From Hyphococcus luteus (lineage in GTDB: Bacteria > Pseudomonadota > Alphaproteobacteria > Caulobacterales > Parvularculaceae), in NCBI RefSeq assembly GCF_002943565.1, contig NZ_PJCH01000015.1, forward strand, positions 682,001-746,000: 64,000 nucleotides of DNA, in the 5' to 3' direction. Below, piece by piece: positions 1 to 15,203 of the stretch. Within the stretch, counting starts at the first letter, position 1; each line of letters begins with the position of its first letter. The notes below the pieces were generated by a model, which made no database searches, had not been told where the DNA came from, and worked only from the letters and a program-made list of their open reading frames with translations. Made by a program: the position numbers and the translations under genes.

Positions 1-3000
1 ATTATCCGCGCCGGCAAGATCCTCGATCTCGCCGCCCGGCGCGCTCGTCATCACCCAGTTGTTGACAAGACCCGGCTCGGTGTCCGGATTGGCGAGCGGC
101 CTGCCTGCATGGTCGGCGATTTCTTCCGGGCTGCGCGCATAATCGAAAATGCGCGCTTCATAAATTTCGCCCTCGAAAACCTGGCCCGTATCGAAGCTTC
201 CGCCTTCGGAATCCTGCTCCTGGCCGAAGGCGAGCGAGCCGCCGGATTTCAGATCGCGGATATTCACCGACGTCTCGAACGCCGTTTCGCCGTCCACAAA
301 GAGTTTCAGCTCATTCGACGCCTGGTCCCAGGTGAACGAGACCTGATGGCGGTCGCCGTCGAGCAGCGAGGCGTTCGTCACGCCGGTGTTGATGCTTTGA
401 CCGGCAATATAAATGTTGAGATCGCCGCTGCCGCCATCGAGGAAGAGCAGCGCTTCATTGTTGGAGCCGTCGCTCGCCGCATAGGAAAAGAGCGGCGTTC
501 CGGCGCCCACATCGGTCTGATCGGAGGCGAAAGCCACTTCGACCGTCAGCGCGTCGGTGGGGAAGCCTTCGAGATTCATGGCGAGCGCGCCGTCGTCGAC
601 GCCGCCGTCCGTGTTGAGCGCCAGCGCGTTGGGCCGGTTTGCAGGCGCCAGATAGAAATCAACCGGCGCTTCGTCGATATCGCCGACAGCCACGGTAAAG
701 GTCGACTGGACCGTATCCCCGGAGGCGCTGATCGCCTCCACGGTGATGTCGTGAGAGTCCTGCGTTTCGTGGTTGAGAGAAACGCCGTCTTTCAGTCTGA
801 TTTCATTCCCGACGATTTCGAACGCGCCGGAGGGATCGTCGACGATGGCGAACTCCGTCACCGGCCCGCCATTGTCCGGATCCGTTGCGGAAAGAACGCC
901 CGCAACCGCGCCCGGCTGGTTTTCGACGACCGTCGGAACGTCGAACGCCTCGCCGCCTTCCACATAGGCGCCGTTCTGCAAGGAGAGATCGTCCGCGCCC
1001 ACAAGGTCTTCAATGACGCCGCCGGTCTCGGCATTCATCACCCAGTTGTTGACGAGGCCCGGCTCGGTGTCCGGGCTGGCGATGGGCGCGCCTTTGTTTG
1101 CGGCGATCTCCTCGCCGCTGCGCGCATAATCGAAGATCCGGACTTCCGCGATCTCGCCTTCAAAGACCTGGCCGCTGTTAAAGCCGCCGCCTTCCGAATC
1201 CTGCTCCTGGCCGAAAACCAGCGAGCCGCCGGATTTGAGGTCGCGGATATTGACCGAGGTCTCAAACGCCGTTTCGCCGTCCACATAGACTTTCAGCTCG
1301 TTCGAGGCCTGGTCCCAGGTGAAGGAGACCTGATGCTGCTCGCCGTCGAGCAGCGAAGCGTTGTCGACGCCGGTGTTGATCTTCTGGCTGGCGAGGAAAA
1401 CATGCAGCTTGCCGCTGGAGCCTTCCATCCACAACAAGGCTTCGTTATCCGAACCGTCGCTCGCCGCATAAGAAAAGAGCGGCGCGCCATTGCCCACATC
1501 GGTCTGATCGGATGCAAACGCGACTTCGACCGTCAGCGCGTCGGTCGGGAACCCCGCCATGTCCGACGCGATGGCCGCATCGTCGCCGCCGCCGTCCCTA
1601 TTGAGCGACAACACGCCCGGTGAGGCGGCCGGCGACAGGGCGAAATCCGTCGGCGTTTCCGTCAGGTCGGCGACGGGAATGTCGAAGCTTTCGCTGGCGC
1701 TTTCGCCATGGGCGTCCGTCGCGGTGACGGTGACATTAATTTCCGAGCCTTCTTCGTAATTGACGTCAGCGTCGTCTTTGAGCTTCAGCACATAACCGCT
1801 GTCGTCTTCGACCACTTCGAACCGGTCGTCGCTGACCGCGATGGAAACAGCGTCGCCGTCCGGGTCCGCGATGGACAGGAGCGCGGCGTGATCGCCGGGG
1901 GTGTTCTCCGTAACGCCGAGCCGGTCTTCGTCGGTGACGCCCGGCAGGCGGTAGCTGTCGCCGCCGATGACTTCCGTGACGCCGCCCGTATCGGGGCCGG
2001 CCCAGGAAAGCTGCAGCGTCGCTTCGCCGCCATTTTCGAAATAGCGCACTTCGATGTCGTGCGCGCCTTCATCGAGATCGACCGTCACCGTGCGGGTGCG
2101 CGTCGAATGTAGCCCGTCATTGTCGAGAACCGGCTCGCCGTCGATGAACAGCATGCTGCCGTCGTCGCTCGCCATGGAGAAGGTATAGGCGCCGCCCTCC
2201 CCGACCATGACCTGGCCTTCATATTTCGCCGCGAAATAATCTCCCGGCGCCCCGTCCCAGAAAGCTTCCTGGCCCTGGGTGTAATTCAAGCTGTCGACAA
2301 CGCCTTCCGCGTCCGGCGCGGCGTTGAAATCCACCTGATCGAGATCGCTCAGGGAATGGCCGATATTATAGTAAGACCCTTTGAGGCCCTCGCCGCCTTG
2401 AAGCGCGATCTCCGGCGCAGAGTTCACATTCTCAACGCCCACGGAGAAAGACATGACGTCGCTGGCGCCGCCGGAATCGGTGACGGTGACGGAAAGATCT
2501 ACCGACGGCTCGGATTCATAATCGAGGCTTTCGCCGTCTTTGAGCTTTAGAACATAGGTCCCGTCCTCGTTCACCACCTCGAAGCGGTCGTCGCTGACCG
2601 CGAAGGCATGAGAGTCGCCGGCGTCGGGGTCGGCAACCGTCAATTCGGCGACAACGGCGCCCGCCGTGTCTTCAGCGACGGAAAGCGAGCCGGCGCTGTA
2701 GCCATGTTCGAACGCCTCGCCGCCGATGACTTCCGTGGCGCCGCCGGTGTCGGGACCGGACCAGGACAGCCGCAGAGTCTGGCTGCCGGTGTTTTCGAAA
2801 TAGCGCACTTCGATATCATGGGCGCCCGCCTCAAGGTCGACTGTCATCGTGTCCGTGCGGGTTCCATGAAGCCCGTCATTGTCGATGACCGGCTCGCCGT
2901 CGATGAACAGCATGCTGCCGTCGTCGCTCGCCATGGAGAACGTATAAGTCCCGCCTTCATTAACGACGAGCTGGCCTTCATATTTCGCCGCGAAATAATT

Positions 3001-5787
3001 GCCCGGCGCCCCGTCCCAGAAAGCTTGCTGGCCTTGCATGTAATCGATGCTGTCGACCACGCTTTCCGCGTTGGGCGGCGCGTTGAAATCGATTTCGTCG
3101 AGATCGCTCAGGGAATGGCCGATATCGTAATAAGACGCTTTGAGGCCGGGACTGCTGACGAGGCCCAGGGACGGGCCTTCATTCGCGTCCGTCACCGTCA
3201 GGGTGAAATTCTGTTCGGAGGTCAGCCCGCCCGCATCACTCGCGGTGACCGTGACGTCGATGGGCGCGGCGGTTTCATAATCGAAGGAAACGCCGGGCTT
3301 CAGTTTCAGTTCGTCGCCGACGACCTCGAAGCGGTCGTCCGACACCGTGTAGCTGACCGCATCGCCCGCATCGGGATCGACGGCGGAAAGCGTGCCGACA
3401 ACGGCGCCGTCGGCGTTCTCGGAGATATCGGTCGACGAAAGGGAAATCGCGCCGGGCGCTTCATTGACGTCCGCGACATTGATGGTGACCGTCTTTCCAA
3501 AGACATTGCCGGCGCTGTCCGTCGCTTCGACGAGGATGTCATGGGAATCCTGGCTTTCGAAATCGAGCGCGGCGCCGGCTTTGAGGCGGACTTCGTCGCC
3601 GACCACTTCGAAAAGACCGGACGGATCGTCGGCGATGGCGAAGCTGGCGCTGTCGCCGAAATCGGGATCCATGGCCGAGAGCGTCCCCACGACCGCGCCC
3701 GCGTCGTTTTCGGCGACGGGCGCAGCGGACAACATGATATCCGTGGGCGTTTCATTGATGTCGGCGACGCTGATCGTCACCGGCTTGTCGAAGCCGTTCC
3801 CCGCCCCGTCCGTCACCCGTAGGGTCAGGTCGTAAGACTCCTGCGTTTCATGGTCGAGCGCGACGCCCGGCTTCAAACGCAATTCGTCGCCGACGACCTC
3901 GAACAGGCCGGACGCGTCTTCCGCAATCGCATAGCTCGCACTGTCGCCAACATCGGGATCGGCAACGGAGAGCGTTCCTACGGTCGCGCCCGCGTCGTTT
4001 TCAGCAACGTCGGTCGCAGAAAGCGTGATATCTGTCGGGGTCTCGTTGACGTCGGCGACGCTGATCGTAACCGGCTTGTCAAAGCTGTTGCCGGCCCCGT
4101 CCGTCACACGGAGGGTCAGGTCGTAGGAATCCCGCGCCTCGTGATCGAGCGCTAGGCCTGGCTTCAGACGCAGTTCGTCGCCGACGATTTCAAAGAGGCC
4201 GGACGCATCTTCCGCAATCGCATAGCTCGCACTGTCGCCGATATCCGGATCGACGGCCGAAAGCGTCGCGACCGTCGCGCCTGCATCATTTTCAGCGACG
4301 CCGCTCGCGGACAGAGCAATATCCGTGGGCGTTTCGTTGATGTCGGCGACGCTGACCGTCACCGGCTTGTCGAAGCTGTTCCCCGCCCCGTCCGTCACTC
4401 GGAGGGTCAGGTCGTAGGAATCCCGGGCTTCATGGTCCAAAGAAACGCCCGGCTTTAAACGCAATTCGTCTCCGACGACCTCGAACAGACCGGATGCGTC
4501 TTCCGCAATCGCATAGCTCGCGCTGTCGCCGATATCCGGATCGGCGACGGAAAGCGTTCCCACCGTCGCGCCCGCGTCGTTCTCGGCGACGCCGGCCGCG
4601 GAAAGCGAAATGTCCGTCGGCGCTTCATTGACGTCGGCGACGTTGATGGTCACCGTCCGCTCGATCGCGGCGCCGTCGCGGTCCGCCGCGCGCAGGGTCA
4701 ACTCGTAACTGTCCTGCTGTTCGAAATCCGCCGCCGCGCTGTCTTTCAGTTTCAACTGATCGCCGACGACCTCGAAAAGCCCGGACGGATCATCAGCGAT
4801 GGCGAATGTCGCCGTATCGCCGGCGTCCGGGTCGCTTGCCGAGAGTGTCGCCACAATGGCGCCGTCTGCATTTTCCGCTAGCGACGTTCCGGAAAGATTT
4901 AAGTCTTCCGGCGCTTCATTGACGTCCGTCACATCGAGCGTGACGGTTTTATCGAAGACATTGCCGGCGCTGTCCGTCGCGCGCAGGGTGAGGACGTAAT
5001 TGTCCTGCGCTTCATAATCGAGGACCGCGCCGTCTTTCAGCTTCAACTCATCGCCGACGATTTCGAACAGGCCGGATTCGTCCGAGACGATGGTGAAGGT
5101 CGACGCATCCTCGAGGTCCGGATCGAGCGCCTCAAGGCTGGCGATAACCGCGCCGGGCGCGTTCTCCGCAACCTCGCTGGCGGAGAGAACGATGTCTGTG
5201 GGCGCGTCGTTGACCGGCGCCTGGTCGCCGAAAGGATTGCCGCCCTGCGCGCCCCCGTGGCTTTGGCTGGCGGAAACGCCTTCGGGCGCGCGCGGCGTAT
5301 TGGCGGCCGGCGCGGCGACGGGCACCCCGCCCGACGCGTTCTGAGCGGCGGCGTCATTCGCGAGCGGCGATAAGGAAGATTGATTGTTTGCGTTCGTTTC
5401 GGGCGCCGCGCTTAATTCGTTATCAAAATTGGTTTGCGCTTCGTTAACGCCGGTTTTTGAATTTTCAGTTTCAGCGCCCTTATTTTGGGGCGCCGCTGCG
5501 CCTGCGATGACGCTAGAAATATTCTCGCCATCCTGCGCCGGCGCGCCGCCGGTTTCAGCGTCCTCGAGATTTTGATCGCCAAAATGGAGGTTGCCATAGC
5601 CGTCCGCGGCGGCGTCGGAGTCAAACCCCTGATCCTCGATTTCGCGCGCCTTTTTCAGCGACTCGCGGTCGCTTTCGAGGCTGTCGTCTTCGTGGGTCCT
5701 TTGAAAATCGGCGCCTTGACGATTGCCCGCAGCATCGCTGCCGGGCTGTTTCGGCGTTTCCTCGGGGCCGGACTTGTCTTTGGCCAT
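1..5787 (-). CDS. Giant cadherin-repeat adhesin with PA14 and LamG-like modules (3' end outside window)
   Basis: An unbroken frame of 1929 codons starts at the ATG at 5787 and reaches base 1 without a stop, so the C-terminus is missing. No signal peptide is seen. The first ~190 residues are a polar linker rich in Asp, Glu, Asn and Ala. Seven cadherin-like repeats follow (residues ~193-868), six of them at an exact 291-bp (97-residue) spacing, each with acidic calcium-type motifs such as ADPDIGD and DVNETPTD. Next come PA14 (~869-1030), cadherin, PA14 (~1120-1276), cadherin, a LamG/concanavalin-like domain (~1380-1585), cadherin, and a second LamG-like domain at the left edge. Such architectures belong to calcium-dependent surface adhesins exported by type I secretion. 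The divergent ABC/HlyD operon beginning 175 bp away is the likely exporter. An RTX C-terminal secretion signal is expected beyond the window but not seen. The function in adhesion or biofilm is inference. Confidence 0.9.
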   Translation of the reverse strand, partial: MAKDKSGPEETPKQPGSDAAGNRQGADFQRTHEDDSLESDRESLKKAREIEDQGFDSDAAADGYGNLHFGDQNLEDAETGGAPAQDGENISSVIAGAAAPQNKGAETENSKTGVNEAQTNFDNELSAAPETNANNQSSLSPLANDAAAQNASGGVPVAAPAANTPRAPEGVSASQSHGGAQGGNPFGDQAPVNDAPTDIVLSASEVAENAPGAVIASLEALDPDLEDASTFTIVSDESGLFEIVGDELKLKDGAVLDYEAQDNYVLTLRATDSAGNVFDKTVTLDVTDVNEAPEDLNLSGTSLAENADGAIVATLSASDPDAGDTATFAIADDPSGLFEVVGDQLKLKDSAAADFEQQDSYELTLRAADRDGAAIERTVTINVADVNEAPTDISLSAAGVAENDAGATVGTLSVADPDIGDSASYAIAEDASGLFEVVGDELRLKPGVSLDHEARDSYDLTLRVTDGAGNSFDKPVTVSVADINETPTDIALSASGVAENDAGATVATLSAVDPDIGDSASYAIAEDASGLFEIVGDELRLKPGLALDHEARDSYDLTLRVTDGAGNSFDKPVTISVADVNETPTDITLSATDVAENDAGATVGTLSVADPDVGDSASYAIAEDASGLFEVVGDELRLKPGVALDHETQESYDLTLRVTDGAGNGFDKPVTISVADINETPTDIMLSAAPVAENDAGAVVGTLSAMDPDFGDSASFAIADDPSGLFEVVGDEVRLKAGAALDFESQDSHDILVEATDSAGNVFGKTVTINVADVNEAPGAISLSSTDISENADGAVVGTLSAVDPDAGDAVSYTVSDDRFEVVGDELKLKPGVSFDYETAAPIDVTVTASDAGGLTSEQNFTLTVTDANEGPSLGLVSSPGLKASYYDIGHSLSDLDEIDFNAPPNAESVVDSIDYMQGQQAFWDGAPGNYFAAKYEGQLVVNEGGTYTFSMASDDGSMLFIDGEPVIDNDGLHGTRTDTMTVDLEAGAHDIEVRYFENTGSQTLRLSWSGPDTGGATEVIGGEAFEHGYSAGSLSVAEDTAGAVVAELTVADPDAGDSHAFAVSDDRFEVVNEDGTYVLKLKDGESLDYESEPSVDLSVTVTDSGGASDVMSFSVGVENVNSAPEIALQGGEGLKGSYYNIGHSLSDLDQVDFNAAPDAEGVVDSLNYTQGQEAFWDGAPGDYFAAKYEGQVMVGEGGAYTFSMASDDGSMLFIDGEPVLDNDGLHSTRTRTVTVDLDEGAHDIEVRYFENGGEATLQLSWAGPDTGGVTEVIGGDSYRLPGVTDEDRLGVTENTPGDHAALLSIADPDGDAVSIAVSDDRFEVVEDDSGYVLKLKDDADVNYEEGSEINVTVTATDAHGESASESFDIPVADLTETPTDFALSPAASPGVLSLNRDGGGDDAAIASDMAGFPTDALTVEVAFASDQTDVGNGAPLFSYAASDGSDNEALLWMEGSSGKLHVFLASQKINTGVDNASLLDGEQHQVSFTWDQASNELKVYVDGETAFETSVNIRDLKSGGSLVFGQEQDSEGGGFNSGQVFEGEIAEVRIFDYARSGEEIAANKGAPIASPDTEPGLVNNWVMNAETGGVIEDLVGADDLSLQNGAYVEGGEAFDVPTVVENQPGAVAGVLSATDPDNGGPVTEFAIVDDPSGAFEIVGNEIRLKDGVSLNHETQDSHDITVEAISASGDTVQSTFTVAVGDIDEAPVDFYLAPANRPNALALNTDGGVDDGALAMNLEGFPTDALTVEVAFASDQTDVGAGTPLFSYAASDGSNNEALLFLDGGSGDLNIYIAGQSINTGVTNASLLDGDRHQVSFTWDQASNELKLFVDGETAFETSVNIRDLKSGGSLAFGQEQDSEGGSFDTGQVFEGEIYEARIFDYARSPEEIADHAGRPLANPDTEPGLVNNWVMTSAPGGEIEDLAGADN

Positions 5788-5962
5788 GGCTCAACTCTGT
5801 ATGTTACGCAACGATAAAGAGCCTAACGGCGGGAACTTAATCAGAAACTTATCAACCTAGTTAACACCCGGTAAAACATAACGACCTTTAGCGCTTATTA
5901 TTCCTAAAGGTTTTAACCATAAAGAAAAATTGGAAAGTTCAGGCGTCAAAGAAGTTCGTTTG
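5788..5962. promoter_or_regulatory. Divergent promoter region between adhesin and type I secretion operon
   Basis: This AT-rich spacer separates the divergent adhesin and exporter genes. It holds a perfect 7-bp inverted repeat, CCTTTAG (5885-5891) and CTAAAGG (5904-5910). A TTAACCAT sequence at 5913-5920 and TTAA-N7-TAAA at 5861-5875 resemble CtrA half-sites of alphaproteobacteria. These are candidate regulator sites only; no -35/-10 pair is clear. Confidence 0.35.
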
Positions 5963-7687
5963 ATGTTATCGAGAGTGCGTGAATTCGCGGCCGAGTTTTT
6001 TCAAAACAGCGGCGGGAAGGAGAACGACCTTCCGGAACCGCCTTTAGGCATGGCGGCGTATGTGGCGTCGGCTGTGATCAATATTCTCGCGCTCGCCCTG
6101 CCCCTCACCATTTTGCAGGTCTATGACCGCGTGCTTCCGAACGCCGCCTACGAAACGCTGACGGCGCTTGTGCTCATGCTCCTCGCCGCCATCGTCATTG
6201 ACGGGCTGTTGAAATATTTCCGCTCGACTGTGGTCAACTGGACCGCAGCGTCCTTTACGCACAAGCTTTCCGTGCGCGCGCTGACCTCGATGCTGGCGAC
6301 AAAGCCTTCGTCCTTCAACAAGACCACCGCCAGCGAACATCTAGAGCGCTTGAACGCAGTCACCGGCCTCGGCAATCACTTAAGCGCCCAGTCGCGCACG
6401 GTCATGGTCGACATTGCGTTCATTCCGGTGTTTTCACTCGTCATCATCGCCATCGGCGGCGTCATCTTCTCCAGCGTCGTCGCGCTTTTCGTTCTCTTCG
6501 GCTTTCTCGCCTATGACGGAACGAAGTCTCTCAACGAGACCATCAATGAGCGCGAAGCCTTCGACGCGCGCAAACAGGATTTCGTGATTGAGGTGCTGGG
6601 GGCCATTCAGACCGTCAAATCGAACGCCATGGAGCCGTTGATGATGCGCCGTTTCGAACGGCTGCAGTCGGCGGCGAGCGTCGTCACCAAGAGAATGATC
6701 AAACTGGCCGGCATGGCGCGCACTTATAACAGCGCCTACGCCGCGCTTTCCACCGTCACCATTGTCAGCGTCGGCGCGCTCCTGGTGCTGAACGGCCGGC
6801 TGACCCTCGGGGCGCTGGCCTGCTGCATGCTTTTGTCTTCGCAATTGCTGCAGCCTTTGATGCGTTCGCTGGCGAGCTGGAACGAAGTCAAGCTGGCCCA
6901 ACACCGGCGCGACCGGATCGCCGCCATTTTTCAGGAATGCGAAGCGCGCAATCTGCCGCCGACGCGATATCCGAACCGTTTCACGCCGCAGAAAGTTGCA
7001 TTTAAAGATCTCACCATCCGCCATGGCGACGCGCCGCCGCTTTTCGAGAACCTCAATCTCGAAATCGACGCCGGCGCCTTTATCGCCATCAAAGGCGACG
7101 ACGGCAGCGGCCGTTCGTCCCTGCTGCGCGCGCTGATTCACGACGCCCCAATCGCCGGCGGCGAGATCGTCATCGGCGATGAAGTCACCAATATCGACTC
7201 CACGACGCTGTCGCGTCGAGCGATACGCTATGTCGGACAGCATCCGTCGCTTTTCCGGGGGTCCATTCTCGACAACATTACGCTTTTCGGCGAAACCCCG
7301 ACGCATGTAGCGCTTTCGGCCTCAAAGCTCGTCGGTCTCGACGACGAAGTTGTGCGCATGCCGCTCGGCTATGACACGCTTCTGAAAAGTTCGACCGGCC
7401 GCGATCTGCCGACGCCCACGGCCCAGCGCATCGCGCTCGCCCGGGCGATCGCCATGCGCCCTTCCGTGCTGGTGCTCGACGATGCGAACGCGTCGCTCGA
7501 TTTCTCCGGCGAACAGCGCTTTGTCGAAGCGCTGGAAAAACTGCGCGGCAAGACGACGATCGTCATGTCCACGCACCGTCCGTCGCTCCTGCGTCTCGCC
7601 GACAAGGTCTATGAAATCCGCGACGGCAAGCTGGCGCCTGCGTCGGTCGAGCCGGCTCAACCCGAAATCGGCAAGGCGGCGTCATGA
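5963..7687 (+). CDS. Type I secretion ABC permease/ATPase subunit 1, degenerate nucleotide-binding domain
   Basis: A 574-residue ABC exporter half-transporter of the PrtD/LapB kind: a six-helix membrane domain (~residues 30-310) followed by an ABC domain. It should act with the next gene and the HlyD adaptor to export the adjacent giant adhesin. The ATPase motifs are odd. Walker A reads GDDGSGRSS with Arg (codon 7112-7114) for the usual Lys. The LSGGQ signature is lost (LPTPT before AQRIALARAI). Walker B is VLVLDD with Asp for the catalytic Glu (7481-7483). The Q-loop (VGQHPSLF) and H-loop (MSTHRPS) remain. The start is uncertain: the ATG at 5963 was chosen, but a TTG at 5930 in the same frame would add 11 residues. 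The stop overlaps the next gene by 4 bp (ATGA), so the two are probably translationally coupled. Confidence 0.85.
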   Translation: MLSRVREFAAEFFQNSGGKENDLPEPPLGMAAYVASAVINILALALPLTILQVYDRVLPNAAYETLTALVLMLLAAIVIDGLLKYFRSTVVNWTAASFTHKLSVRALTSMLATKPSSFNKTTASEHLERLNAVTGLGNHLSAQSRTVMVDIAFIPVFSLVIIAIGGVIFSSVVALFVLFGFLAYDGTKSLNETINEREAFDARKQDFVIEVLGAIQTVKSNAMEPLMMRRFERLQSAASVVTKRMIKLAGMARTYNSAYAALSTVTIVSVGALLVLNGRLTLGALACCMLLSSQLLQPLMRSLASWNEVKLAQHRRDRIAAIFQECEARNLPPTRYPNRFTPQKVAFKDLTIRHGDAPPLFENLNLEIDAGAFIAIKGDDGSGRSSLLRALIHDAPIAGGEIVIGDEVTNIDSTTLSRRAIRYVGQHPSLFRGSILDNITLFGETPTHVALSASKLVGLDDEVVRMPLGYDTLLKSSTGRDLPTPTAQRIALARAIAMRPSVLVLDDANASLDFSGEQRFVEALEKLRGKTTIVMSTHRPSLLRLADKVYEIRDGKLAPASVEPAQPEIGKAAS

Positions 7688-9891
7688 CCGAGATTCAGAC
7701 CTCTCCGCCCGCGCCCGAAACCGCCGAAGACGGCGCCGCGCCAAGCCCCCCGGTGCACCGGCTGCAGAACCGTTTGCGCGCGGCTTTCTCCACCGGCGCG
7801 AGCCGCAAGACGACCGCGAATGACGACTGCATCGCCGCCCTCGAGCGCTTTCTCGCCCTCACCGACTGGGCGCAGGGCCGGCGCCGGGTCTTCGAAGCGA
7901 TGCCCCATATGGATGCGGTCGAAACCGTCGCGGCTTTCCGCGCCGTTCTTTTCCGCCTCGGCTTTACGTCGAAATCGGAGCCGGCGGCGGCGCAAAATCT
8001 GCGCCCCGAATATCTTCCCTGTTTCATCCGGGAGGAGAGCGGCGCCGTCAAACTCGCCGAGCAGCGCACCCGCGACGGCGATATCGTCATCTACGACCCG
8101 ACGACCCGGGCCAGCACAAAGATGAAGCCGGAAGAGATCGACGGCCTCGCTGTGTTTCCCGAAAAGATCGAAAAGACGGAAACTCAGAACGCGCCGAATC
8201 CGCCTTCCTGGACATCGGAAATCCTGCGCGTCTTCCGGCCGCTTATACGGCATATTTTCGTCATCAGCTTCGCCGTCAATGTCCTGGCGCTGGCGCCGCC
8301 GATTTTCGTCATGTCGGTTTACGACAAGGCGATCGCCACGCATTCCTTCGACGTGCTCGCCGGTCTCGCCATCGGCATCACTTTCATCGTCGCCGCGGAT
8401 TTCGCCCTGCGCCAGGTGCGCGTGCGCCTTCAGGCCTATCTCGGCGCGCGGCTCGACGAACAGCTTAACGAAACCGCATTCCGCCATCTTCTGCATCTGT
8501 CCCTGTCGCATACGGAAGACGCGCCCATCGGCGCGCAGCTGACGCGCCTCAGGCAGATGACGTCGCTGCATGAAGTCTTCACCGGCCCGCTCGCCGGCGC
8601 GCTGTTCGATCTGCCTTATGTGGCGCTCTTCATTCTCGTCATCGCGCTGATCGGCGGACCGCTTGTCTGGGCGCCGATCACGCTCATCGCGGTTTACGCC
8701 CTCGCCGCCGCCTGGGCGATCCCGAAAAACAACCGTCTCATTCGCAAGGCCGGGGAAGCGCGTTCGCATCTCAATAATCTGACCGTCGAGGCCGTCTCCT
8801 CGCAGCAGGCGATCAGCGACCTCGCCGCCGAACATGTCTGGCTGCGCCGCCACCGCAAGCTTTCCGCCGAAACCGCCATGGCGCATATGAAGGCGCGGCG
8901 GCTTAATTTCGGGCTGCAAACTTTTTCCCAGGCCATGGTGGCGACCGTCGGCGTCGCGGTTTTGACCTTCGGCGTCGAAAGGGTGATCGCGGGCGATCTC
9001 ACCGGCGGCGCGCTGATTGCCGTGATGGCGCTTTCCTGGCGCGTGCTCGGACCGATCCGCAATCTCTTCCTCACCGGCTTGACGCTGGGGCAAACCATTC
9101 AAAGCCTGCAGCAGGTGAACCGGCTGACGCGCATGCCGCTGGAGCGCGAACCGAATGCAAGCCCGTCCATCCCGCGCAGTTTCAAAGGCCACATCATGGC
9201 CGACAAGGTGACCTTCCGTTATCCGGGCCAGCGCGAGCCTTCCTTGCGCGGCGTCTCCTTCGACGTGCGCCCCGGCAATCTCATGTGCATTTACGGCCAG
9301 AGCGGCTCCGGCGCCTCGACGATGCTGCGCGTCCTGTTGGGCCTGCATCAGCAGCAAGCCGGCTCGATCTTCATCGACGGCCTCGATCTGCGCCAGCTCG
9401 ACAAGGGCGAATGGCGCCAGGCGATCGGCGTCGCCATGCCCTCGCTCGACCTGTTTTACGGAACGGTCGCGCAGAACATCCGCCTTGCGAGTCCCGACGC
9501 CTCCGACGCCGACATCGAACAGATCGCCGAACGGCTCGGCATCGACCGCTATTATGGCGGCGCGCTCGATCAGGGGCTCGACACGATGTGCACGTCCCAG
9601 GCGCGCGCGCGCTGGCCCAACGCGCTGCTTTCGCGCATCAACCTCGCCCGCGCCTTCATCAAGGACGCGCCGATCTACCTTCTCGACGAACCCGGCGCGA
9701 CGCTCGACAGCGAAGGGGAGAAAGCGCTGCTTTCCATCCTCGAGGAAAGACGGAAAACCAGTTCAATCATCATGACGACCCAGCGTCCGAGCCATATGCG
9801 GCTTGCCGATTTTGTCGTGTGGATGGATCGCGGCTTTGTCCGCGATATCGGCCCGCCCGATGCGATCGTGCCGAAAGTGCTCGCCGCCTGA
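7684..9891 (+). CDS. Type I secretion ABC permease/ATPase subunit 2 with N-terminal C39-like domain, degenerate ATPase
   Basis: A 735-residue ABC exporter half-transporter. The first ~165 residues resemble the catalytically dead C39-like domain of RTX exporters (segment LRPEYLPCFI and following); no protease Cys-His pair was recognised. The membrane domain spans ~185-460 and the ABC domain ~500-735. Walker A reads GQSGSGAST with Ala (9313-9315) for Lys. The Q-loop Gln is replaced (VAMPSLDLF), the LSGGQ signature is replaced by WPNAL, and the H-loop His is Gln (MTTQRPS, 9781-9783). Walker B with its Glu (IYLLDE) is intact. Subunits 1 and 2 probably form a heterodimer, yet neither composite ATP site has a full motif set. 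The ATG overlaps the previous stop, and 16 bp separate it from the HlyD gene. Assignment to type I secretion is firm; the mechanism is open. Confidence 0.87.
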   Translation: MTEIQTSPPAPETAEDGAAPSPPVHRLQNRLRAAFSTGASRKTTANDDCIAALERFLALTDWAQGRRRVFEAMPHMDAVETVAAFRAVLFRLGFTSKSEPAAAQNLRPEYLPCFIREESGAVKLAEQRTRDGDIVIYDPTTRASTKMKPEEIDGLAVFPEKIEKTETQNAPNPPSWTSEILRVFRPLIRHIFVISFAVNVLALAPPIFVMSVYDKAIATHSFDVLAGLAIGITFIVAADFALRQVRVRLQAYLGARLDEQLNETAFRHLLHLSLSHTEDAPIGAQLTRLRQMTSLHEVFTGPLAGALFDLPYVALFILVIALIGGPLVWAPITLIAVYALAAAWAIPKNNRLIRKAGEARSHLNNLTVEAVSSQQAISDLAAEHVWLRRHRKLSAETAMAHMKARRLNFGLQTFSQAMVATVGVAVLTFGVERVIAGDLTGGALIAVMALSWRVLGPIRNLFLTGLTLGQTIQSLQQVNRLTRMPLEREPNASPSIPRSFKGHIMADKVTFRYPGQREPSLRGVSFDVRPGNLMCIYGQSGSGASTMLRVLLGLHQQQAGSIFIDGLDLRQLDKGEWRQAIGVAMPSLDLFYGTVAQNIRLASPDASDADIEQIAERLGIDRYYGGALDQGLDTMCTSQARARWPNALLSRINLARAFIKDAPIYLLDEPGATLDSEGEKALLSILEERRKTSSIIMTTQRPSHMRLADFVVWMDRGFVRDIGPPDAIVPKVLAA

Positions 9892-9907
9892 CGCCGGAGA
9901 AGGACCC

Positions 9908-11257
9908 ATGTCGAACACAAAATTGAATGTCCAAACCCCGCATGAGACCGTCGGCGAGCGCCACGGCCTGGCGCTGCCCATCGAGCTTGAGGAAGGCGCG
10001 CCGCCGCATCTCGCCAAGACGGCGATGGCGATCCTCAGCGGTCTTGTGATCCTGCTTCTCGTCTGGGCGAACATCGCCCATATCCGCGAGCTGTCGGTCG
10101 CTGTCGGCGAAATCGCGCCTTACGGTTCGACCCGCGAAGCGGCGCATCTCGAAGGCGGCATTATCGACGAATTGCTGGTAAAGCCGGGCGACGTCGTCGC
10201 TGAAAACCAGCCCCTCGCCCGCCTGACGGCGGAAGGCGCCGGCGGCGAGGTCGAACGGCTTTCGGCCCGGCGCGCCAGCCTCGACATCCGCGCCGAACGC
10301 ATGGACGCGCAAGCCGCCGGGCGCGCGCCGGATTTCACAGCCTGGCAGGACGCCTGGCCCGGCCTCGTGACGGAACAGCAATCGGTCTACAACGCCGCCG
10401 TCGCTAAGCGGGAAGCCGAGATGGCGACGCTGGTTTCGCGCGAAACCTCGGCGAAAGCGGAAGTCGTCAAAGCCGAAGCGCAGCTCAGATCGGAAAATGA
10501 CATTCTCGAATTCGCCCGCGAACAACTCTCCATTCAAGAGCAGCTCATCGACGAAGGCTTTACATCGAGACAATCCTACCTTCAGGCGAAATCGGCGGTC
10601 GCCACCGCCGAAGCGAACGCCGCCGTCGCCAAATCCCGCCTCGGCCAGGCGCGCGACGCGCTGGAAGCCGCGAGCGCCGACCGCGCCGGCGCGGAAGCGG
10701 ACTACAAGTCTAAGATCGCCGAAGAACGCGCCGGCGTACTCGGCGAACTCGCCGAGCTTGAACAGCCCTTCAATGCGCTGCAGGACCGTTCCGACCGGCT
10801 GACCGTGCGCTCGCCCGTTGCCGGCGTCGTCAATGCGGTGTTGGTGAACGGTCATGGCGACGTTGTCCGCCCCGGCGGCGTCGTCGCCGAGATCACGCCC
10901 ACCGGCGCCAAGCTCTTCGCCGAAGTGCGCGTCGCGCCGAAAGACATCGGCCATGTGGCCCCGGGACAGAAAACCGACGTGACGATCACGACCTTCGATC
11001 CGAACCGCTATGGCAAGATATCCGGCACGGTGTCGCACATTTCAGCCGACAGCTTCACCGACGAACGCACGGGCGACGCCTATTACATCGCCTATGTCGA
11101 GCTTGAAGAACAAATGATCGGCAAGGGCCATAACGCCCGGGCGCTGACGGCGGGCATGCAGGTCCGGGCCGAAATCGTGACCCAGACGCGCACGCTCATG
11201 CAATATGCGTTAAAGCCGGTCTCGCGCTCCCTCGACCGGGCGTTCACGGAACGCTGA
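9908..11257 (+). CDS. HlyD-family type I secretion periplasmic adaptor
   Basis: A 449-residue membrane-fusion protein bridging the inner-membrane ABC exporter to an outer-membrane TolC-like channel. A short cytoplasmic tail precedes one transmembrane helix (~38-58, AILSGLVILLLVWANIAHI). Then come a lipoyl/barrel-sandwich half (GGIIDELLVKPGDVV), a long Ala/Glu/Arg coiled coil (~100-285), the second lipoyl half (VRSPVAGVVNAV) and a C-terminal beta-barrel. This is the normal HlyD/PrtE plan and length. The ATG has a good Shine-Dalgarno (GGAGAAGG, about 6 nt upstream); earlier in-frame starts would overlap the ABC gene. No outer-membrane factor is encoded next to it; the TolC-like protein at 24192 belongs to the metal-efflux operon. 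Confidence 0.93.
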   Translation: MSNTKLNVQTPHETVGERHGLALPIELEEGAPPHLAKTAMAILSGLVILLLVWANIAHIRELSVAVGEIAPYGSTREAAHLEGGIIDELLVKPGDVVAENQPLARLTAEGAGGEVERLSARRASLDIRAERMDAQAAGRAPDFTAWQDAWPGLVTEQQSVYNAAVAKREAEMATLVSRETSAKAEVVKAEAQLRSENDILEFAREQLSIQEQLIDEGFTSRQSYLQAKSAVATAEANAAVAKSRLGQARDALEAASADRAGAEADYKSKIAEERAGVLGELAELEQPFNALQDRSDRLTVRSPVAGVVNAVLVNGHGDVVRPGGVVAEITPTGAKLFAEVRVAPKDIGHVAPGQKTDVTITTFDPNRYGKISGTVSHISADSFTDERTGDAYYIAYVELEEQMIGKGHNARALTAGMQVRAEIVTQTRTLMQYALKPVSRSLDRAFTER

Positions 11258-11266
11258 GCCGGGCGA

Positions 11267-12841
11267 TCAGTAGACGTCTCTTCTATAGCGGTTGTCTGCA
11301 ATGAGGCGCGACAGCGCCGCCTCGCCGATGACTTCTTTCAGCGCCGCATCGACGCCGTCGCCCAGCCCCTTGCGGCTGCCGCTCACATAGATCGCCGCGC
11401 CGTCCTTCAGCCATTGATGCAGTTGGGAGTCTTCTTCCCGCAAGACATCCTGGGCCAGCCTCTGGACGCCGTCTTCGAGGAAACACAAATCAAGACGCGC
11501 CAGCGCCGCTGACGCCCGCCAGCTTTCGATCTCGTCTTTGAAAAGATAATCCTTTTCAGGGTCGCGTTCGCCGAAAATCAGCCAGTTGCGGCCCCGCCCC
11601 GCAGCCGCGCGTTCTTTCATGTGAGCGCGCAAGCCCGCGACGCCCGATCCGGCGCCGATAAGGATCATCGGCCGGTCTTTTTCGGGACCGCGGAAAGACG
11701 GATTGGCGCGCAGGCGCATCTCGATCTCCGCGCCTTCCGCCGCATGCTCCGTCAGCCAGCCGGAGCCGACGCCGAGACGCCCGTCCGGATAACGCAACTG
11801 ACGAATGACGAGCTCGGCTTTTCCATCCGCCGGCAGGGACGCCAGCGAATATTCGCGCGGCGCAAGCGGCTGCAGGCCATCGACCGCCCCTTGCGCGCCG
11901 GCGCCCGCAAGCTTTGCGCGCATACCCGGCTCCGGCAGCGTCCGTTGCCGGAGCGCGTCTTTCAGCGTCATCTTTTCACCGCGCAGCGTCACCGGCGCGC
12001 CGCCATCGAGCTTCAAGGCGAGAAGCAAGTCGTCGACGGCGCGCGTCTCGTTGCGCGGCCTGACGACCGCAATGTCCCCGGCGCGCCAATCGGGAAGCGC
12101 GGCCGTCGGTTCAAGGCACATATGAAAGACAGGCGCATTGTCGCTGCCGGGATTGAGCCGGCGGCGCGCGGCGAGGCGCCATGTCTCGAAGGCGGGCGCA
12201 TCCGCGCCTGACGCCGCGCCGAGGGTTGCAAGCTTTGCAAACCATTCCGCGATAGCCGCTTCATCGCCGCGGTCCACATCGGTGCGGACGAACAGCGCCG
12301 CCGCGCCGCTCGCCTCGAGCCAGGCGTCAAGACGCCGCCCGAAACCGCAGAAATCGGCGTAGCTGCTGTCGCCAAGCGCGAGAACGGCGTAGCGAAGACC
12401 GGACAGCGCGGCGGGCGCCGCCATCATGCGGGCCTCGAAACCGCCCGCCGCATCGGGCGCGTCGCCCTCGCCCGTGGTGCTCGCAATGAAAAGCGCCATG
12501 CGCGCCTTTTGAAGCTGCGCAAGATCGAGCGCCGCGACATCCGCAAGGCGCGCCGCCTGTCCGCCGTCGGCAAGCGCTTTCACGGTGTGGCGCGCCAGTT
12601 CTTCGGCGACGCCGGTCTGGGTCGCATAAGCGACGAGGATTTCGTCTGCGTTTTCCGCGCCGCCCGTCTCGCTTGCCGATTTCCGGCGCGCCGTGATCCG
12701 TATAAAGAGAAGATACAAAGCGGCGACAAGACCCGCCTCGGCGGCCTTCAACCATAAAGGCGCAACCCCATGCCCCGCCAATCCGCCTGCGAACCACAGG
12801 AGGGCGAGAACGCCCGCGATGAATATGCTTACAGCCGCCAT
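11267..12841 (-). CDS. Membrane-anchored flavodoxin/NADPH reductase (CysJ-like diflavin reductase)
   Basis: A 524-residue protein with two N-terminal membrane helices (~1-50), a flavodoxin FMN domain (~68-205; AYATQTGVAEE phosphate loop, ASTTGEGDAP, LGDSSYADFC), and an FAD/NAD(P)H oxidoreductase part (YSLASLP for FAD, IGAGSGVAGLRAHMKER for the pyridine nucleotide). It ends in RYRRDVY, the typical CysJ/P450-reductase terminus with an aromatic last residue. It likely moves electrons from NADPH through FAD and FMN. It is the last gene of a five-gene operon with PepSY-type membrane, DUF2271, DUF4198 and ApbE proteins behind Fur boxes, so a role in iron-linked reduction, rather than sulfite reduction, is inferred. 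No hemoprotein CysI is nearby. Its 3' end converges with the HlyD gene (9-bp gap). Confidence 0.85.
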   Translation of the reverse strand: MAAVSIFIAGVLALLWFAGGLAGHGVAPLWLKAAEAGLVAALYLLFIRITARRKSASETGGAENADEILVAYATQTGVAEELARHTVKALADGGQAARLADVAALDLAQLQKARMALFIASTTGEGDAPDAAGGFEARMMAAPAALSGLRYAVLALGDSSYADFCGFGRRLDAWLEASGAAALFVRTDVDRGDEAAIAEWFAKLATLGAASGADAPAFETWRLAARRRLNPGSDNAPVFHMCLEPTAALPDWRAGDIAVVRPRNETRAVDDLLLALKLDGGAPVTLRGEKMTLKDALRQRTLPEPGMRAKLAGAGAQGAVDGLQPLAPREYSLASLPADGKAELVIRQLRYPDGRLGVGSGWLTEHAAEGAEIEMRLRANPSFRGPEKDRPMILIGAGSGVAGLRAHMKERAAAGRGRNWLIFGERDPEKDYLFKDEIESWRASAALARLDLCFLEDGVQRLAQDVLREEDSQLHQWLKDGAAIYVSGSRKGLGDGVDAALKEVIGEAALSRLIADNRYRRDVY

Positions 12842-12852
12842 GCGCGCCCCGG

Positions 12853-13842
12853 TCAGTCCAGCATGGCGGCGAGCGCGCCAGTGAGGCGCTCGTCCCCCGC
12901 GCCGGCGCCGGCAAGCCGCACGGCGAGCCCCTGTTTTTCCGCAAAAGCAAACCCGTCCAGCGGCCCCATGACGAAAATCGCCGTCGCATAAGCGTCGGCC
13001 ATCATCGCGCTGTCATGAATGACGGTCACGGCCGAAAGCCCGCTCTCAGCCGAATAGCCCGTGCGCGGGTCGAGAAGATGCGAATAGCGCCGGCCGCCAT
13101 GATCGAAAAAATTGACGCCGCTCCCCGACGTCGCAACGGCGAGATCGTAAAGCGCGATGACAAATCCCGCATCCTCCACCGCCGCGTCAGCGTCAAGCGC
13201 CGCCCACCACGGCTCGCCATTAGGTTTGACGCCCCGTCCTTTGAGCTCGCCGCCGACTTCCACAAGCCAGGAGGCGATCCCGAGCGCGTCGAGCGCGTCG
13301 CCCGCCTCGTCGACGCCGAAGCCTTTGGCGATGGAGCAAAGGTCGAGCTTCACGCCGCCCGGCTGAAAAAGCCGGCCCGCCTCTTCGTCGGTGTCCAGCG
13401 CCCGCCCGCACCGGCCGAGCGCCGCGTCGATGTCCCGTCCGGAAGGCGGCGCGGCGCGCCTTTCGGCGGGGCCGAACCCCCACAAATCCACAAGCGCGCC
13501 GCTCGCGGGATCGTAAGCGCCGCCGGTCTCCTTTGCGACGGCGGCGGCTGCCTTCGCCACGCGCATGAACGCATCGGGGATCTCGACCCAGCTTGCGGCC
13601 GGCGCCGCATTAAAGCGCGCGATGTCGCTATAGCGCTCCCACGGGCTCATCTCGGCGACGACGCGGTCGAGACTGTGCTGCACCGCTTCGCACACCGCGC
13701 CGGCGTCCACGGACTCCGGCGCAACAAAGCGCACGCTCCATGTGGTTCCCATGGTTTCGCCGGCGCACCGCCTGACGCTCCCTTGAGGAAGCGCGCGCGG
13801 CGGCGCCGACAAATGCGGAATCGCCGCGCGCCTTGCTGACAT
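12853..13842 (-). CDS. apbE: FAD:protein FMN transferase (ApbE)
   Basis: A 329-residue ApbE-family protein that transfers FMN from FAD covalently to Thr/Ser of target proteins, normally in the periplasm. Family motifs are present: MGTTWSVRF near the start, the DLCSIAKGFGVDEA segment, VEVGGELKGRG, and the C-terminal metal/FAD region SHLLDPRTGY ... DSAMMADAYATAIFVMG. No clear signal peptide is visible, only a short basic start (MSARRAAIPHL). The ATG at 13842 has GGAAAG just upstream. Spacing to the next gene is 11 bp and to the preceding one 22 bp, so it is operonic. A natural target would be a PepSY/FMN-binding partner of the operon, but no FMN-binding acceptor motif was confirmed. Confidence 0.9.
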   Translation of the reverse strand: MSARRAAIPHLSAPPRALPQGSVRRCAGETMGTTWSVRFVAPESVDAGAVCEAVQHSLDRVVAEMSPWERYSDIARFNAAPAASWVEIPDAFMRVAKAAAAVAKETGGAYDPASGALVDLWGFGPAERRAAPPSGRDIDAALGRCGRALDTDEEAGRLFQPGGVKLDLCSIAKGFGVDEAGDALDALGIASWLVEVGGELKGRGVKPNGEPWWAALDADAAVEDAGFVIALYDLAVATSGSGVNFFDHGGRRYSHLLDPRTGYSAESGLSAVTVIHDSAMMADAYATAIFVMGPLDGFAFAEKQGLAVRLAGAGAGDERLTGALAAMLD

Positions 13843-13864
13843 GCTTTCCAATTTCCACCCCGTT

Positions 13865-14671
13865 TTACTGCGGCAAGACTTCCAGCGTCGCGGTGTAGCC
13901 CGCGCGCGAGCCGGAGGAGCGCGGCACGCTTGTCTCCTTGCTCTCCATCGTCGCATTGAGCCAATACATGCCTGCTTCCGGCCAGGTCACGTCGAAGCTT
14001 CCGTCATCGCCGGTCGTGACTTTCATCTCATTCAGCGCATTGCGGTAGCGGATGCCATCGCGAATGACGGACACTACAACGCCTTTTGCGGGTTTGCCAT
14101 TCATCAGTAGACGGAAGGATGCGGTTTCTCCGGCAAAGAGATCGTTCGGATGAACCCCATATTCGATCTCGAGGCCCTTGCCGGAGGTTTTCACCGTTTC
14201 ATCGGTCGGCGCGCCGACCGTGACGAAGGTGTCGACGCGGCGCGCGCTCTCGCTGATGCGCACATCCTCGGCGTCTTTCGGGATGGCCGTTTCGATTTCC
14301 GACGCCTGGCCGCGCCAGCGCTTTTGTTCGCCGTTCACCTTGTAGAACGCAAAGACGCCGTCGCTGACGAGCGAAACGCGATAGGTGCCCTGCTGCTTGA
14401 GATTGAGGTCGAACGAATTTCTGAGACGGCCTTCGGCCATATTCTGAGGCTCGACGGAAGAGCCGTCCGGAGCGGCGATCACGAGATCCTCGAGGCGAAG
14501 CGGTCGGTGATCGAAATAAAAGACTTCATTGGCCGCCGCCGCATCGACGGTCACCCAGACATCATCCCCCGACAAAACGGTGGAAGACGGCAAAAACCAG
14601 GTGCGGTGCGCCATGGCTGAGGTGGGAATGAGCAAGGCGAGCGCCAGCGCGGTCCATTTTTTCAAAGTCAT
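13865..14671 (-). CDS. DUF4198 periplasmic protein
   Basis: A 268-residue exported protein with a clean signal peptide (MTLKKWTALALALLIPTSAMA, cleavage before HRTWFLP). The mature start AHRTWFLPS and the following beta-rich body match DUF4198 (COG5266, loosely NikM/CbiK-like, metal-associated). The C-terminal half holds a carboxypeptidase-regulatory-like beta sandwich (GDDGSFDVTWPEAGMYWL). The His right after the cleavage site could bind metal, which is inference. The ATG has a strong Shine-Dalgarno (GGGAGAAAG). It lies in the Fur-boxed operon, 18 bp after the DUF2271 gene. DUF4198 and DUF2271 partners with PepSY proteins are recurrent in proteobacterial iron-responsive loci. Confidence 0.85.
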   Translation of the reverse strand: MTLKKWTALALALLIPTSAMAHRTWFLPSSTVLSGDDVWVTVDAAAANEVFYFDHRPLRLEDLVIAAPDGSSVEPQNMAEGRLRNSFDLNLKQQGTYRVSLVSDGVFAFYKVNGEQKRWRGQASEIETAIPKDAEDVRISESARRVDTFVTVGAPTDETVKTSGKGLEIEYGVHPNDLFAGETASFRLLMNGKPAKGVVVSVIRDGIRYRNALNEMKVTTGDDGSFDVTWPEAGMYWLNATMESKETSVPRSSGSRAGYTATLEVLPQ

Positions 14672-14689
14672 GTCTTTCTCCCAAGGATT

Positions 14690-15193
14690 CTAGGGTTTGA
14701 GCGTAAGGATGACGGGGCCGAGTTCGCGCCCGCCTTCGAGACGGATGGTGGTTTCTTCTTTCGGCGGCCATTGCACGGCCCCATGCAGGAGTTCGCGGCC
14801 TCCGACTTCGCGCACGGCCTCGATCATGAATTCGTATTCGCCCGGCGCGAGGTCATTGAGTTTTTCGTCGAATGTCACTTCATGGGCGCCCGGCGCGCGC
14901 GTCGGCCCGCTGACGCCGTCGACCGGCATGTCGGTGCTGCGCCCGATGCGCCGCCACCACTGGCGCAGATCCTTCAGCCAGTCCTCGCCTTCGTCATTGC
15001 GCATCTCGACGTCGTACCAGACGGCGAGATTGGCGGCCGGCTTGCCGTCCGGCGTCTGCAGCCACATGGCCACATAAGGCCGGTGATATTCGGCGACGTC
15101 GAGGCGCGGAATGTCGACGCCGACGGTCATGTCCGCAGCGGCGGCCGGCGCGATCAGCGCGGCTGCGGCCGTAGCGGGAAGAAACAGTTTCAT
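14690..15193 (-). CDS. DUF2271 exported protein
   Basis: A 167-residue protein with a signal peptide (MKLFLPATAAAALIAPAAAA). The mature part has DUF2271 signatures: PYVAMWLQTPDG, a conserved WYDVE...WLKDLRQWWR segment and a Gly/Pro-rich C-terminal strand region (RELGPVILTL). The function of DUF2271 is not established; the family travels with PepSY, DUF4198 and flavin-reductase genes. The start at 15193 has AGAGGG five bases upstream. It is the second gene of the operon, 10 bp after the PepSY-type gene. Confidence 0.85.
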   Translation of the reverse strand: MKLFLPATAAAALIAPAAAADMTVGVDIPRLDVAEYHRPYVAMWLQTPDGKPAANLAVWYDVEMRNDEGEDWLKDLRQWWRRIGRSTDMPVDGVSGPTRAPGAHEVTFDEKLNDLAPGEYEFMIEAVREVGGRELLHGAVQWPPKEETTIRLEGGRELGPVILTLKP

Positions 15194-15203
15194 AAAACCC
15201 TCT

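What the first reader, a model, noticed from the sequence alone, without database searches (positions are those of the whole stretch)
5963..9891. Tandem type I secretion ABC pair with both ATPase sites eroded
Seen: subunit 1 has Arg for the Walker A Lys, Asp for the Walker B Glu and no LSGGQ. Subunit 2 has Ala for the Walker A Lys, no Q-loop Gln, no LSGGQ and Gln for the H-loop His. Known: heteromeric ABC exporters usually keep one full composite site. Here neither pairing gives one, yet both frames are intact, translationally coupled and followed by an HlyD gene, so they look selected. The exporter may use a non-standard ATP cycle, borrow an ATPase, or act as a slow gate for a giant adhesin.
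Basis: partly seen in the sequence, partly recalled or inferred. Interest (0 to 1): 0.72.

Follow-up and report, generated by a model that had tools for sequence, protein, structure and literature searches.

The report
Adhesin exporter with eroded ATP motors
A marine bacterium exports a giant sticky surface protein through a two-part pump whose ATP-burning motifs are altered in both halves, a change shared by related species, so the pump seems to be kept in use without a normal ATP engine.

Summary
Subunits A (5963-7687) and B (7684-9891), with HlyD, a ~3036-aa cadherin/RTX adhesin and a TolC-like gene, form a complete type I secretion locus. The window pair has no Walker A Lys and no LSGGQ in either half.

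This is not recent decay. A was found in 23 of 27 other genomes of the genus. Among 77 complete pairs LSGG is absent from A in 77 and from B in 77. A and B are separate, supported clades. Elsewhere in the phylum the same tandem or fused pair keeps one near-normal site, B's Lys/Glu/His facing A's LPxG signature: 18 of 19 pairs. In the window's lineage 0 of 13 keep it, and all 13 lack both Lys. dN/dS in the five closest of 12 pairs is 0.02-0.17. Genome G021 (listed 100% complete) has this pair and a single HlyD, which weakens the 'borrowed secretion ATPase' idea.

Best reading: a dedicated heterodimeric exporter that binds nucleotide but hydrolyses it slowly or not at all; transport may be driven by proton motive force and Ca2+-driven folding outside. 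Identity is well supported; the energy source is untested inference.

The parts
5963..7687 (+). Subunit A: ABC exporter half (TMD + NBD, no N-terminal C39-like region), 574 aa
   Evidence: Pfam ABC_membrane 6.6e-22, ABC_tran 1.8e-16; LssB-like, 305.9 bits, below the cut-off of 693.1; AlphaFold2 model mean pLDDT 80.6 with TMD helices and NBD strands/helices
7094..7120 (+). A Walker A GDDGSGRSS, Lys->Arg
   Evidence: Arg in 13 of 13 window-lineage pairs
7406..7429 (+). A signature region LPTPTAQR in place of LSGGQ
   Evidence: no LSGG in 77 of 77 A
7469..7483 (+). A Walker B LVLDD, catalytic Glu->Asp
   Evidence: Glu kept in 10 of 13 of the lineage
7568..7585 (+). A H-loop STHRPS, His kept
   Evidence: His in 13 of 13 of the lineage
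7684..9891 (+). Subunit B: ABC exporter half with N-terminal C39-like region, 735 aa; ATGA overlap with A
   Evidence: Pfam ABC_membrane and ABC_tran (no Pfam hit for the N-terminal region); LssB model matched from residue 56, 437.5 bits, below cut-off; overlap
9214..9228 (+). B A-loop FRYPG, aromatic kept
   Evidence: Y, F or H in 77 of 77 B
9295..9321 (+). B Walker A GQSGSGAST, Lys->Ala
   Evidence: no Lys in 13 of 13 of the lineage
9613..9636 (+). B signature region WPNALLSR in place of LSGGQ
   Evidence: no LSGG in 77 of 77 B
9676..9690 (+). B Walker B YLLDE, Glu kept
9775..9792 (+). B H-loop TTQRPS, His->Gln
   Evidence: Gln in 13 of 13 of the lineage
9902..11257 (+). HlyD-type periplasmic adaptor, 451 aa
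   Evidence: TIGR01843 3.7e-93, 312.8 bits over cut-off 208.65; Pfam HlyD_3
1..5787 (-). Giant adhesin, first 1929 aa; continues outside the window to contig position 678677 (L041:13678), about 3036 aa in all
   Evidence: open frames; Pfam on this piece: Cadherin 8 stretches, PA14 2, pentaxin/LamG 2; on the downstream piece L041:13681-18999, which overlaps window 1-1998: RTX nonapeptide 10 stretches, Cadherin 2, pentaxin/LamG 2; an OEP (TolC-like) gene lies next to its end at L041:12244-13668

Best explanation
A and B form the heterodimeric inner-membrane ABC exporter of a dedicated type I secretion system for the divergent giant cadherin/RTX adhesin. They belong to an old family of paired (sometimes fused) exporters whose usual members keep one site that looks hydrolysis-competent: B's Walker A/B/H-loop facing A's LPxG signature. 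The tree suggests that in the window's lineage this was lost in steps: first B's catalytic Glu and A's signature glycine, then A's Walker A Lys (mostly to Arg), last B's Walker A Lys and H-loop His, with B's Glu coming back. I infer that the pair still binds nucleotide and still opens as a protein channel, but hydrolyses ATP very slowly or not at all, and that the long substrate is moved mainly by the proton motive force and by Ca2+-dependent folding of the adhesin outside. Shown: the gene set, the constant pairing, the conserved altered motifs, purifying selection, the single loss of B's Lys on the tree. Inferred: heterodimer assembly, nucleotide binding, loss of hydrolysis, the exact order of the earlier losses, and the energy source.
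For: Complete cassette A-B-HlyD with divergent adhesin and OEP gene. A long divergent frame starts within 174 nt of A in 20 of 24 orthologous loci, many cut by the end of the stretch; the rest are 1 without enough flank (L053), 2 with a shifted or broken frame (L056, L065), 1 without it (L054). A and B are separate clades, SH-aLRT 99 and 100, quick search. A-B in one open frame in L105 and L205 and in 6 of 19 phylum pairs. One competent-looking site (B K/E/H with A's second signature Gly) in 18 of 19 phylum pairs; such a site of either kind in 27 of 31 class-scan pairs and 2 of 7 mixed others, but in 0 of 13 window-lineage, 0 of 10 other Marinicaulis and 0 of 16 Stappiaceae pairs. The window lineage is one side of a branch (99) and loss of B's Lys needs one change. 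dN/dS in the five closest pairs: A NBD 0.11-0.14, B NBD 0.02-0.17. NBD/TMD distance ratio has medians A 1.20, B 1.07 here and 1.01/1.04 in the other Marinicaulis pairs, against 0.91 and 0.74 in canonical exporters, as expected if hydrolysis is relaxed but the protein is kept. B's A-loop aromatic or His in 77 of 77 and A's H-loop His in 13 of 13 fit retained nucleotide binding. From papers: HlyB H662A has <0.1% ATPase activity (PMC9751043, passages); P-gp with both Walker A motifs mutated is catalytically inactive (PMC4846820, abstract); secretion by HlyB also needs proton motive force (PMC3034196, passage).
Against: No biochemical data. The double Walker A mutant of P-gp is stabilised inward-open, which argues that such a pair should not work at all. 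A keeps Arg, His and, in 10 of 13, Glu, so slow hydrolysis at A's site is possible. No energy-coupling gene was recognised beside the locus, though only a few neighbours were searched. Window against the more distant lineage member L046 gives higher dN/dS (0.16-0.29; 0.45 for the C39-like region). The Ca2+-folding drive I saw only as a reference title; the rest is recall.
Confidence: 0.5

Rival explanations
1. Slow but real ATPase: A's site (Arg384, Asp/Glu507, His538, facing B's WPxAL loop) hydrolyses ATP at a low rate, enough for an exporter that needs few cycles per giant substrate.
For: Arg in 13 of 13 and His in 13 of 13 lineage members, Glu in 10 of 13: A's site is the better kept of the two. 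Altered signatures are themselves conserved: P483 and Q488 of A (25 sequences) and W644 of B (24 sequences) are invariant.
Against: Window A also lacks the catalytic Glu; the facing loop of B has no second signature Gly in 13 of 13 and the Ser in only 3 of 13; A's A-loop position is Arg in 4 of 13.
Confidence: 0.28
2. Mixed engine: in a three-dimer HlyB/D-like assembly the eroded pair is the channel and a canonical ABC dimer supplies hydrolysis.
For: HlyB/D is a trimer of dimers of which only one is the channel (PMC9751043, passage). A canonical LssB gene is in 21 of 28 genus genomes, own genome included.
Against: G002, G007, G016, G021 and G023 carry the pair but no LssB ortholog at 1e-100. 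G021 has only the cassette's HlyD at 1e-30; its two other LssB-model matches at 1e-40 have normal ABC motifs but no HlyD of their own. G016 and G023 do have another T1SS-like ABC gene beside a second HlyD, and a non-T1SS ABC partner is not excluded anywhere.
Confidence: 0.12
3. Early decay: the exporter is non-functional and on its way out.
For: NBD/TMD distance ratios above 1; one ortholog (L063) has A split over two frames and one (L054) lacks the adjacent adhesin; 4 of 27 other genus genomes had no match at 1e-60, two of them below 85% complete.
Against: A frames not interrupted in the other 24 Marinicaulis orthologs, some B cut only by contig ends; dN/dS well below 1 in close pairs; kept gene order and adhesin.
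Confidence: 0.08

Closest known systems
LssB/LapB-type T1SS exporters (TIGR03375), e.g. LapB of Pseudomonas fluorescens
   Same: Best-scoring curated model for both subunits; LapEBC of P. fluorescens secretes the adhesin LapA (PMC8277102, passage); B has the N-terminal region of the model
   Different: Both score below the curated cut-off (305.9 and 437.5 against 693.1); two subunits, no LSGGQ; no LapG protease gene (PF06035) found in the genome (the LapG-PF06035 link is recalled)
Heterodimeric ABC exporters with one degenerate site (TM287/288, TmrAB, BmrCD, TAP, MRP1)
   Same: Asymmetric pairs; most sampled members of this family keep one site (18 of 19 phylum pairs)
   Different: Here no site keeps Lys, Glu and His together (0 of 13)
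MARTX atypical T1SS (RtxB + RtxE + RtxD)
   Same: Two ABC exporter proteins both needed, transporter operon divergent from a giant RTX protein (PMC3034196, passages)
   Different: RtxB and RtxE sequences were not compared here; gene order differs (rtxBDE against A-B-HlyD)
HlyB/HlyD of E. coli
   Same: Same fold family by sequence; profile A1 matches HlyB chains 7sgr and 8dck
   Different: HlyB has a working ATPase; its H-loop mutant is nearly dead. That HlyB is a homodimer is recalled

Membership tests
Type I secretion system | ABC exporter + HlyD adaptor + TolC-like OEP + RTX-type substrate at one locus | tested here: met
TIGR03375 LssB subfamily | Score over the curated cut-off (693.1 bits) | tested here: not met
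   A 305.9, B 437.5 bits; own canonical LssB 744 bits
Heterodimeric exporter with one degenerate site | One composite site with Walker A Lys, catalytic Glu, H-loop His and a facing signature with its second Gly | tested here: not met
   0 of 13 in the window lineage; 27 of 31 in the class scan, 18 of 19 in the phylum sample
Heterodimeric exporter with one degenerate site | Two different subunits that pair | tested here: inconclusive
   B follows A in 33 of 33 class-scan regions, A and B clades, natural fusions; physical pairing not tested
Lap adhesin system | LapG (Peptidase_C93) in the genome | tested here: not met
   0 matches in own genome; the control search rings in Caulobacter
MARTX four-component T1SS | RtxB/RtxE-type pair, both needed for secretion | not tested
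   No MARTX sequence was fetched or compared
Nucleotide-gated ABC channel (CFTR/SUR-like mode) | Opening driven by nucleotide binding with little hydrolysis | not testable with these tools
   needs biochemistry

The most novel reading that the evidence does not exclude
A type I secretion ABC exporter that has given up ATP hydrolysis altogether and works as a nucleotide-gated or nucleotide-independent protein channel, with a giant RTX adhesin pulled out by proton motive force and Ca2+-driven folding; intermediate steps of that loss are still visible in living relatives.
Probability: 0.27. Interest if true: 0.85.

Novelty: new variant of a known kind. Interest (0 to 1): 0.62.

Why it matters
What ATP hydrolysis does in type I secretion, against proton motive force and folding of the substrate outside, is to my knowledge not settled. 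A natural exporter without a canonical site, next to relatives with one site, gives a graded series in which this can be tested without making mutants. It also points to a paired T1SS family, now under the generic name 'type I secretion system permease/ATPase', in which LSGG was absent from both subunits in 77 of 77 and 19 of 19 sampled pairs, with Pro for the Ser in 71 of 77 A.

Tried and rejected
Recent decay and sequencing error: rejected as the main reading, because the same states occur in orthologs including a one-contig genome (G004 = L044) and dN/dS is low in close pairs.

Compensating Lys near the A P-loop (the 'IKG' Lys before the first Gly): looked at in the motif table; it is K, R, T or E among orthologs, so not treated as a replacement.

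A third ABC gene in the window: none seen; of the 34 own-genome matches of A only A and B lie in 682001-746000 of contig C7.

Promoters and terminators at 5700-11400: 0 promoter-like sites (0.9 expected), 7 terminator-like (6.8 expected), so no information.

Corrections to my notebook: entry 1 says 24 of 27 same-genus genomes; one search shows 23 of 27 others (24 of 28 with the own genome) and 0 of 32 outside the genus. Entry 2 calls L110 an A-B fusion; its A and B come from different frames. Fusions counted here are L105, L205 and six phylum loci.

One search sliced L110's A wrongly and showed junk for it; replace it. read '-' strand loci in the wrong orientation (junk rows); one search replaces it.

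Rows left out of the 77 pairs: L043, L060, L198 (truncated), L108, L186 (unpaired), L063 (A split over two frames); L113 failed a length filter, L115-L118 were not taken in. L274 is left out of the 19 phylum pairs (B missing).

The class and phylum samples were drawn by similarity to A profiles (A1, A5), so pairs with a normal LSGGQ could have been missed; 0 of 77 and 0 of 19 hold for these samples only. In the phylum sample the signature Ser itself is kept in 9 of 19 B and 0 of 19 A. The 187 of 398 phylum genomes probably include canonical single exporters and are not a count of the family.

dN/dS: 12 pairs were run; many regions had saturated dS, so the five closest are quoted, plus window-L046 as a contrary value.

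Literature: ten searches listed no paper that I recognised as describing a T1SS pair lacking LSGGQ in both subunits; I saw listings and opened seven papers in part; the library holds open-licence papers only. Rhizobium leguminosarum T1SS (PMC2275737, passages and section 8): its four T1SS ABC proteins have a conserved Walker A; whether they belong to this family was not tested.
Full report
OBSERVATION. The window lies at G000:C7:682001-746000 of a 4.92 Mb, 99% complete genome. The two ABC genes are at the stated place. A (5963-7687) and B (7684-9891) overlap by ATGA; HlyD begins 10 bases after the B stop. Motifs were read from the translations and from an alignment with 25 canonical exporters. 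A: Walker A Lys->Arg, Walker B Glu->Asp, LPTPT for LSGGQ, Q-loop Gln and H-loop His kept. B: Walker A Lys->Ala, no Q-loop Gln, WPNAL for LSGGQ, H-loop His->Gln, catalytic Glu kept. In an ABC dimer each site joins the Walker motifs of one half with the signature of the other (PMC4846820, opening text). Neither pairing is complete here.

LOCUS. Divergent from A, starting at 5787, runs a giant gene that leaves the window and ends at contig position 678677 (L041:13678), about 3036 aa. Pfam finds cadherin, PA14, pentaxin/laminin-G and RTX calcium-binding repeats. Next to its end lies an OEP/TolC-type gene (L041:12244-13668); such a gene was also found by Pfam near the cassette in five of five other loci that I picked for testing (L071, L073, L084, L087, L091). 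So this is a complete type I secretion locus: OEP, adhesin, two ABC halves, HlyD. No third ABC protein was seen in the window. No LapG-type protease was found in the genome.

GENUS. A was found at 1e-60 in 24 of 60 genomes: the own genome and 23 of 27 others of its genus, 0 of 32 outside it. The four without a match are G001 and G019 (83 and 76% complete), G008 and G026 (100 and 91%). Records with contigs of the same lengths are titled Marinicaulis, Parvularcula, Parvularculaceae or Alphaproteobacteria; I use 'Marinicaulis' as a label. Two states exist among complete Marinicaulis pairs. Other lineages (10 pairs): A without Lys in 9; B keeps Lys and His in 10 but has Asp or Asn for Glu in 10. 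Window lineage (13 pairs): A Arg in 13; B without Lys in 13 and with Gln for His in 13, but Glu in 12. The window lineage is one side of a branch (SH-aLRT 99) and B's Lys was lost in one change (LG+G4 quick tree, motif columns left out). It lies inside the other Marinicaulis lineages, so Lys loss in B is late and Glu in B probably came back.

FAMILY. Genome contigs gave 51 loci: Marinicaulis, Roseibium/Labrenzia/Stappia, a few other Alphaproteobacteria and some distant ABC proteins. A class scan found A at 1e-100 in 41 of 385 genomes and 34 of 277 genera, own genome included. In the 33 regions fetched B follows A in 33, cut by the contig end in L186 and L198; HlyD was seen in 30, and in the other three (L186, L188, L198) the contig ends. 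A tree of 109 chosen rows puts all 48 A together (99) and all 47 B together (100), apart from 14 canonical exporters (quick search; some long branches). A and B form one open frame in L105, L205 and in 6 of 19 phylum pairs. Pairing is thus old and constant in what was sampled, and natural fusion supports a heterodimer.

STEPWISE LOSS. In 77 complete pairs LSGG is in 0 A and 0 B; Pro stands for the signature Ser in 71 A and 57 B. In the phylum sample 18 of 19 pairs keep one competent-looking site, B's Lys/Glu/His with A's second signature Gly, and 0 of 19 keep the other: the usual asymmetric heterodimer, apart from the odd signature; there B keeps the Ser in 9 of 19. In the class scan a site of either kind is kept in 27 of 31, in the seven mixed others in 2. 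In Stappiaceae (16) none keeps a site with the Gly; 14 keep Lys/Glu/His in A only, the opposite half. In the other Marinicaulis pairs 1 of 10 (L062) keeps Lys/Glu/His, in A. In the window lineage none keeps Lys/Glu/His in either half and 13 of 13 have no Walker A Lys at all; these 13 are the only such pairs of the 77. B's A-loop aromatic (or His) is kept in 77 of 77, which fits retained nucleotide binding. The order of the earlier losses is less sure: A's Lys needs 8 changes on the tree, B's Glu 3, A's Gly 2, B's His 6.

SELECTION. NG86 dN/dS in the five closest of 12 pairs is 0.11-0.14 (A NBD) and 0.02-0.17 (B NBD). Window against L046 gives 0.16-0.29, and 0.45 for the C39-like region. NBD/TMD distance ratios have medians of 1.20 (A) and 1.07 (B) in the window lineage, 1.01 and 1.04 in the other Marinicaulis, 1.48 and 1.23 in Roseibium and kin, 1.02 and 0.86 in the class scan, 0.91 in canonical LssB and 0.74 in other ABC exporters. 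The NBDs are less constrained relative to the TMDs than in canonical pumps, but far from neutral. An AlphaFold2 model of A (34 sequences, mean pLDDT 80.6, pTM 0.65) shows the TMD helices and the NBD strands and helices. B was not folded and no fold search ran.

BORROWED ATPASE. A canonical LssB ortholog is in 21 of 28 genus genomes. Five genomes have the pair but no LssB ortholog (G002, G007, G016, G021, G023). G016 and G023 have another T1SS-like ABC gene with a near-canonical signature (LSAGQ) beside a second HlyD. G007 has only the cassette's HlyD but is 84% complete. G021 (listed 100% complete, 0% contamination) has only the cassette's HlyD at 1e-30; its two other LssB-model matches at 1e-40 have normal ABC motifs (L219, L221). 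There B has Thr, Ala and Gln for Lys, Glu and His (L049), and the divergent frame is over 3100 aa. If G021's adhesin is secreted, this pair most likely does it without a dedicated T1SS ATPase.

MECHANISM. The best-supported reading is a dedicated exporter that binds nucleotide but hydrolyses it poorly or not at all. Known facts that set the stakes: HlyB H662A has <0.1% ATPase activity (PMC9751043, passages); P-gp with both Walker A motifs mutated is inactive and inward-open (PMC4846820, abstract); HlyB-driven secretion also needs the proton motive force (PMC3034196, passage). A calcium-driven ratchet for RTX proteins I saw only as a reference title (Bumba 2016). That the energy comes from these sources here is inference.

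NOVELTY. Ten literature searches (listed under Tried and rejected) showed no such pair described; the review of degenerate sites (PMC7756269, passages) speaks of one degenerate site in the passages I read. I call it a new variant of a known kind.

Noticed in passing
L038 (G000:C1:110000-128000), 8295-13569 +: A second A-B-HlyD set of the same family in the own genome: A has no recognisable Walker A (AEAPQKASR), B keeps Lys and Glu; a histidine kinase gene lies upstream. G025 has a similar set (L067).
   Followed up: partly
L093-L104, L106, L111, L112, L114 (Stappiaceae, 16 pairs): The better kept site is in A rather than B: Lys/Glu/His in A in 14 of 16, in B 0 of 16, yet A's A-loop aromatic is lost in 16 of 16. 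In 7 of 16 a HlyD gene lies upstream, on the adhesin side.
   Followed up: partly
L277 (G476:C6), 1293-5560 +: Another strongly eroded pair outside the genus: B with Ser for Glu and no H-loop His, A without H-loop His.
   Followed up: no
L054 / L087 (G014:C17): A-B-HlyD kept but an OEP gene, not the adhesin, lies directly upstream of A.
   Followed up: no
L063 (G027:C69), 2317-4240 -: A is split over two overlapping frames; B is one frame. Decay or assembly error, not decided.
   Followed up: no
window 11267-15815 -: A five-gene run: flavodoxin/reductase-like, ApbE, DUF4198, DUF2271, PepSY_TM-like; probably a separate function.
   Followed up: partly
G447, G474, G500, G517 and others: Several genomes outside the class show three matches to profile A5, some of them in 1300-1480 aa frames; six such frames were fetched and all six are A-B fusions (L268-L273).
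   Followed up: partly
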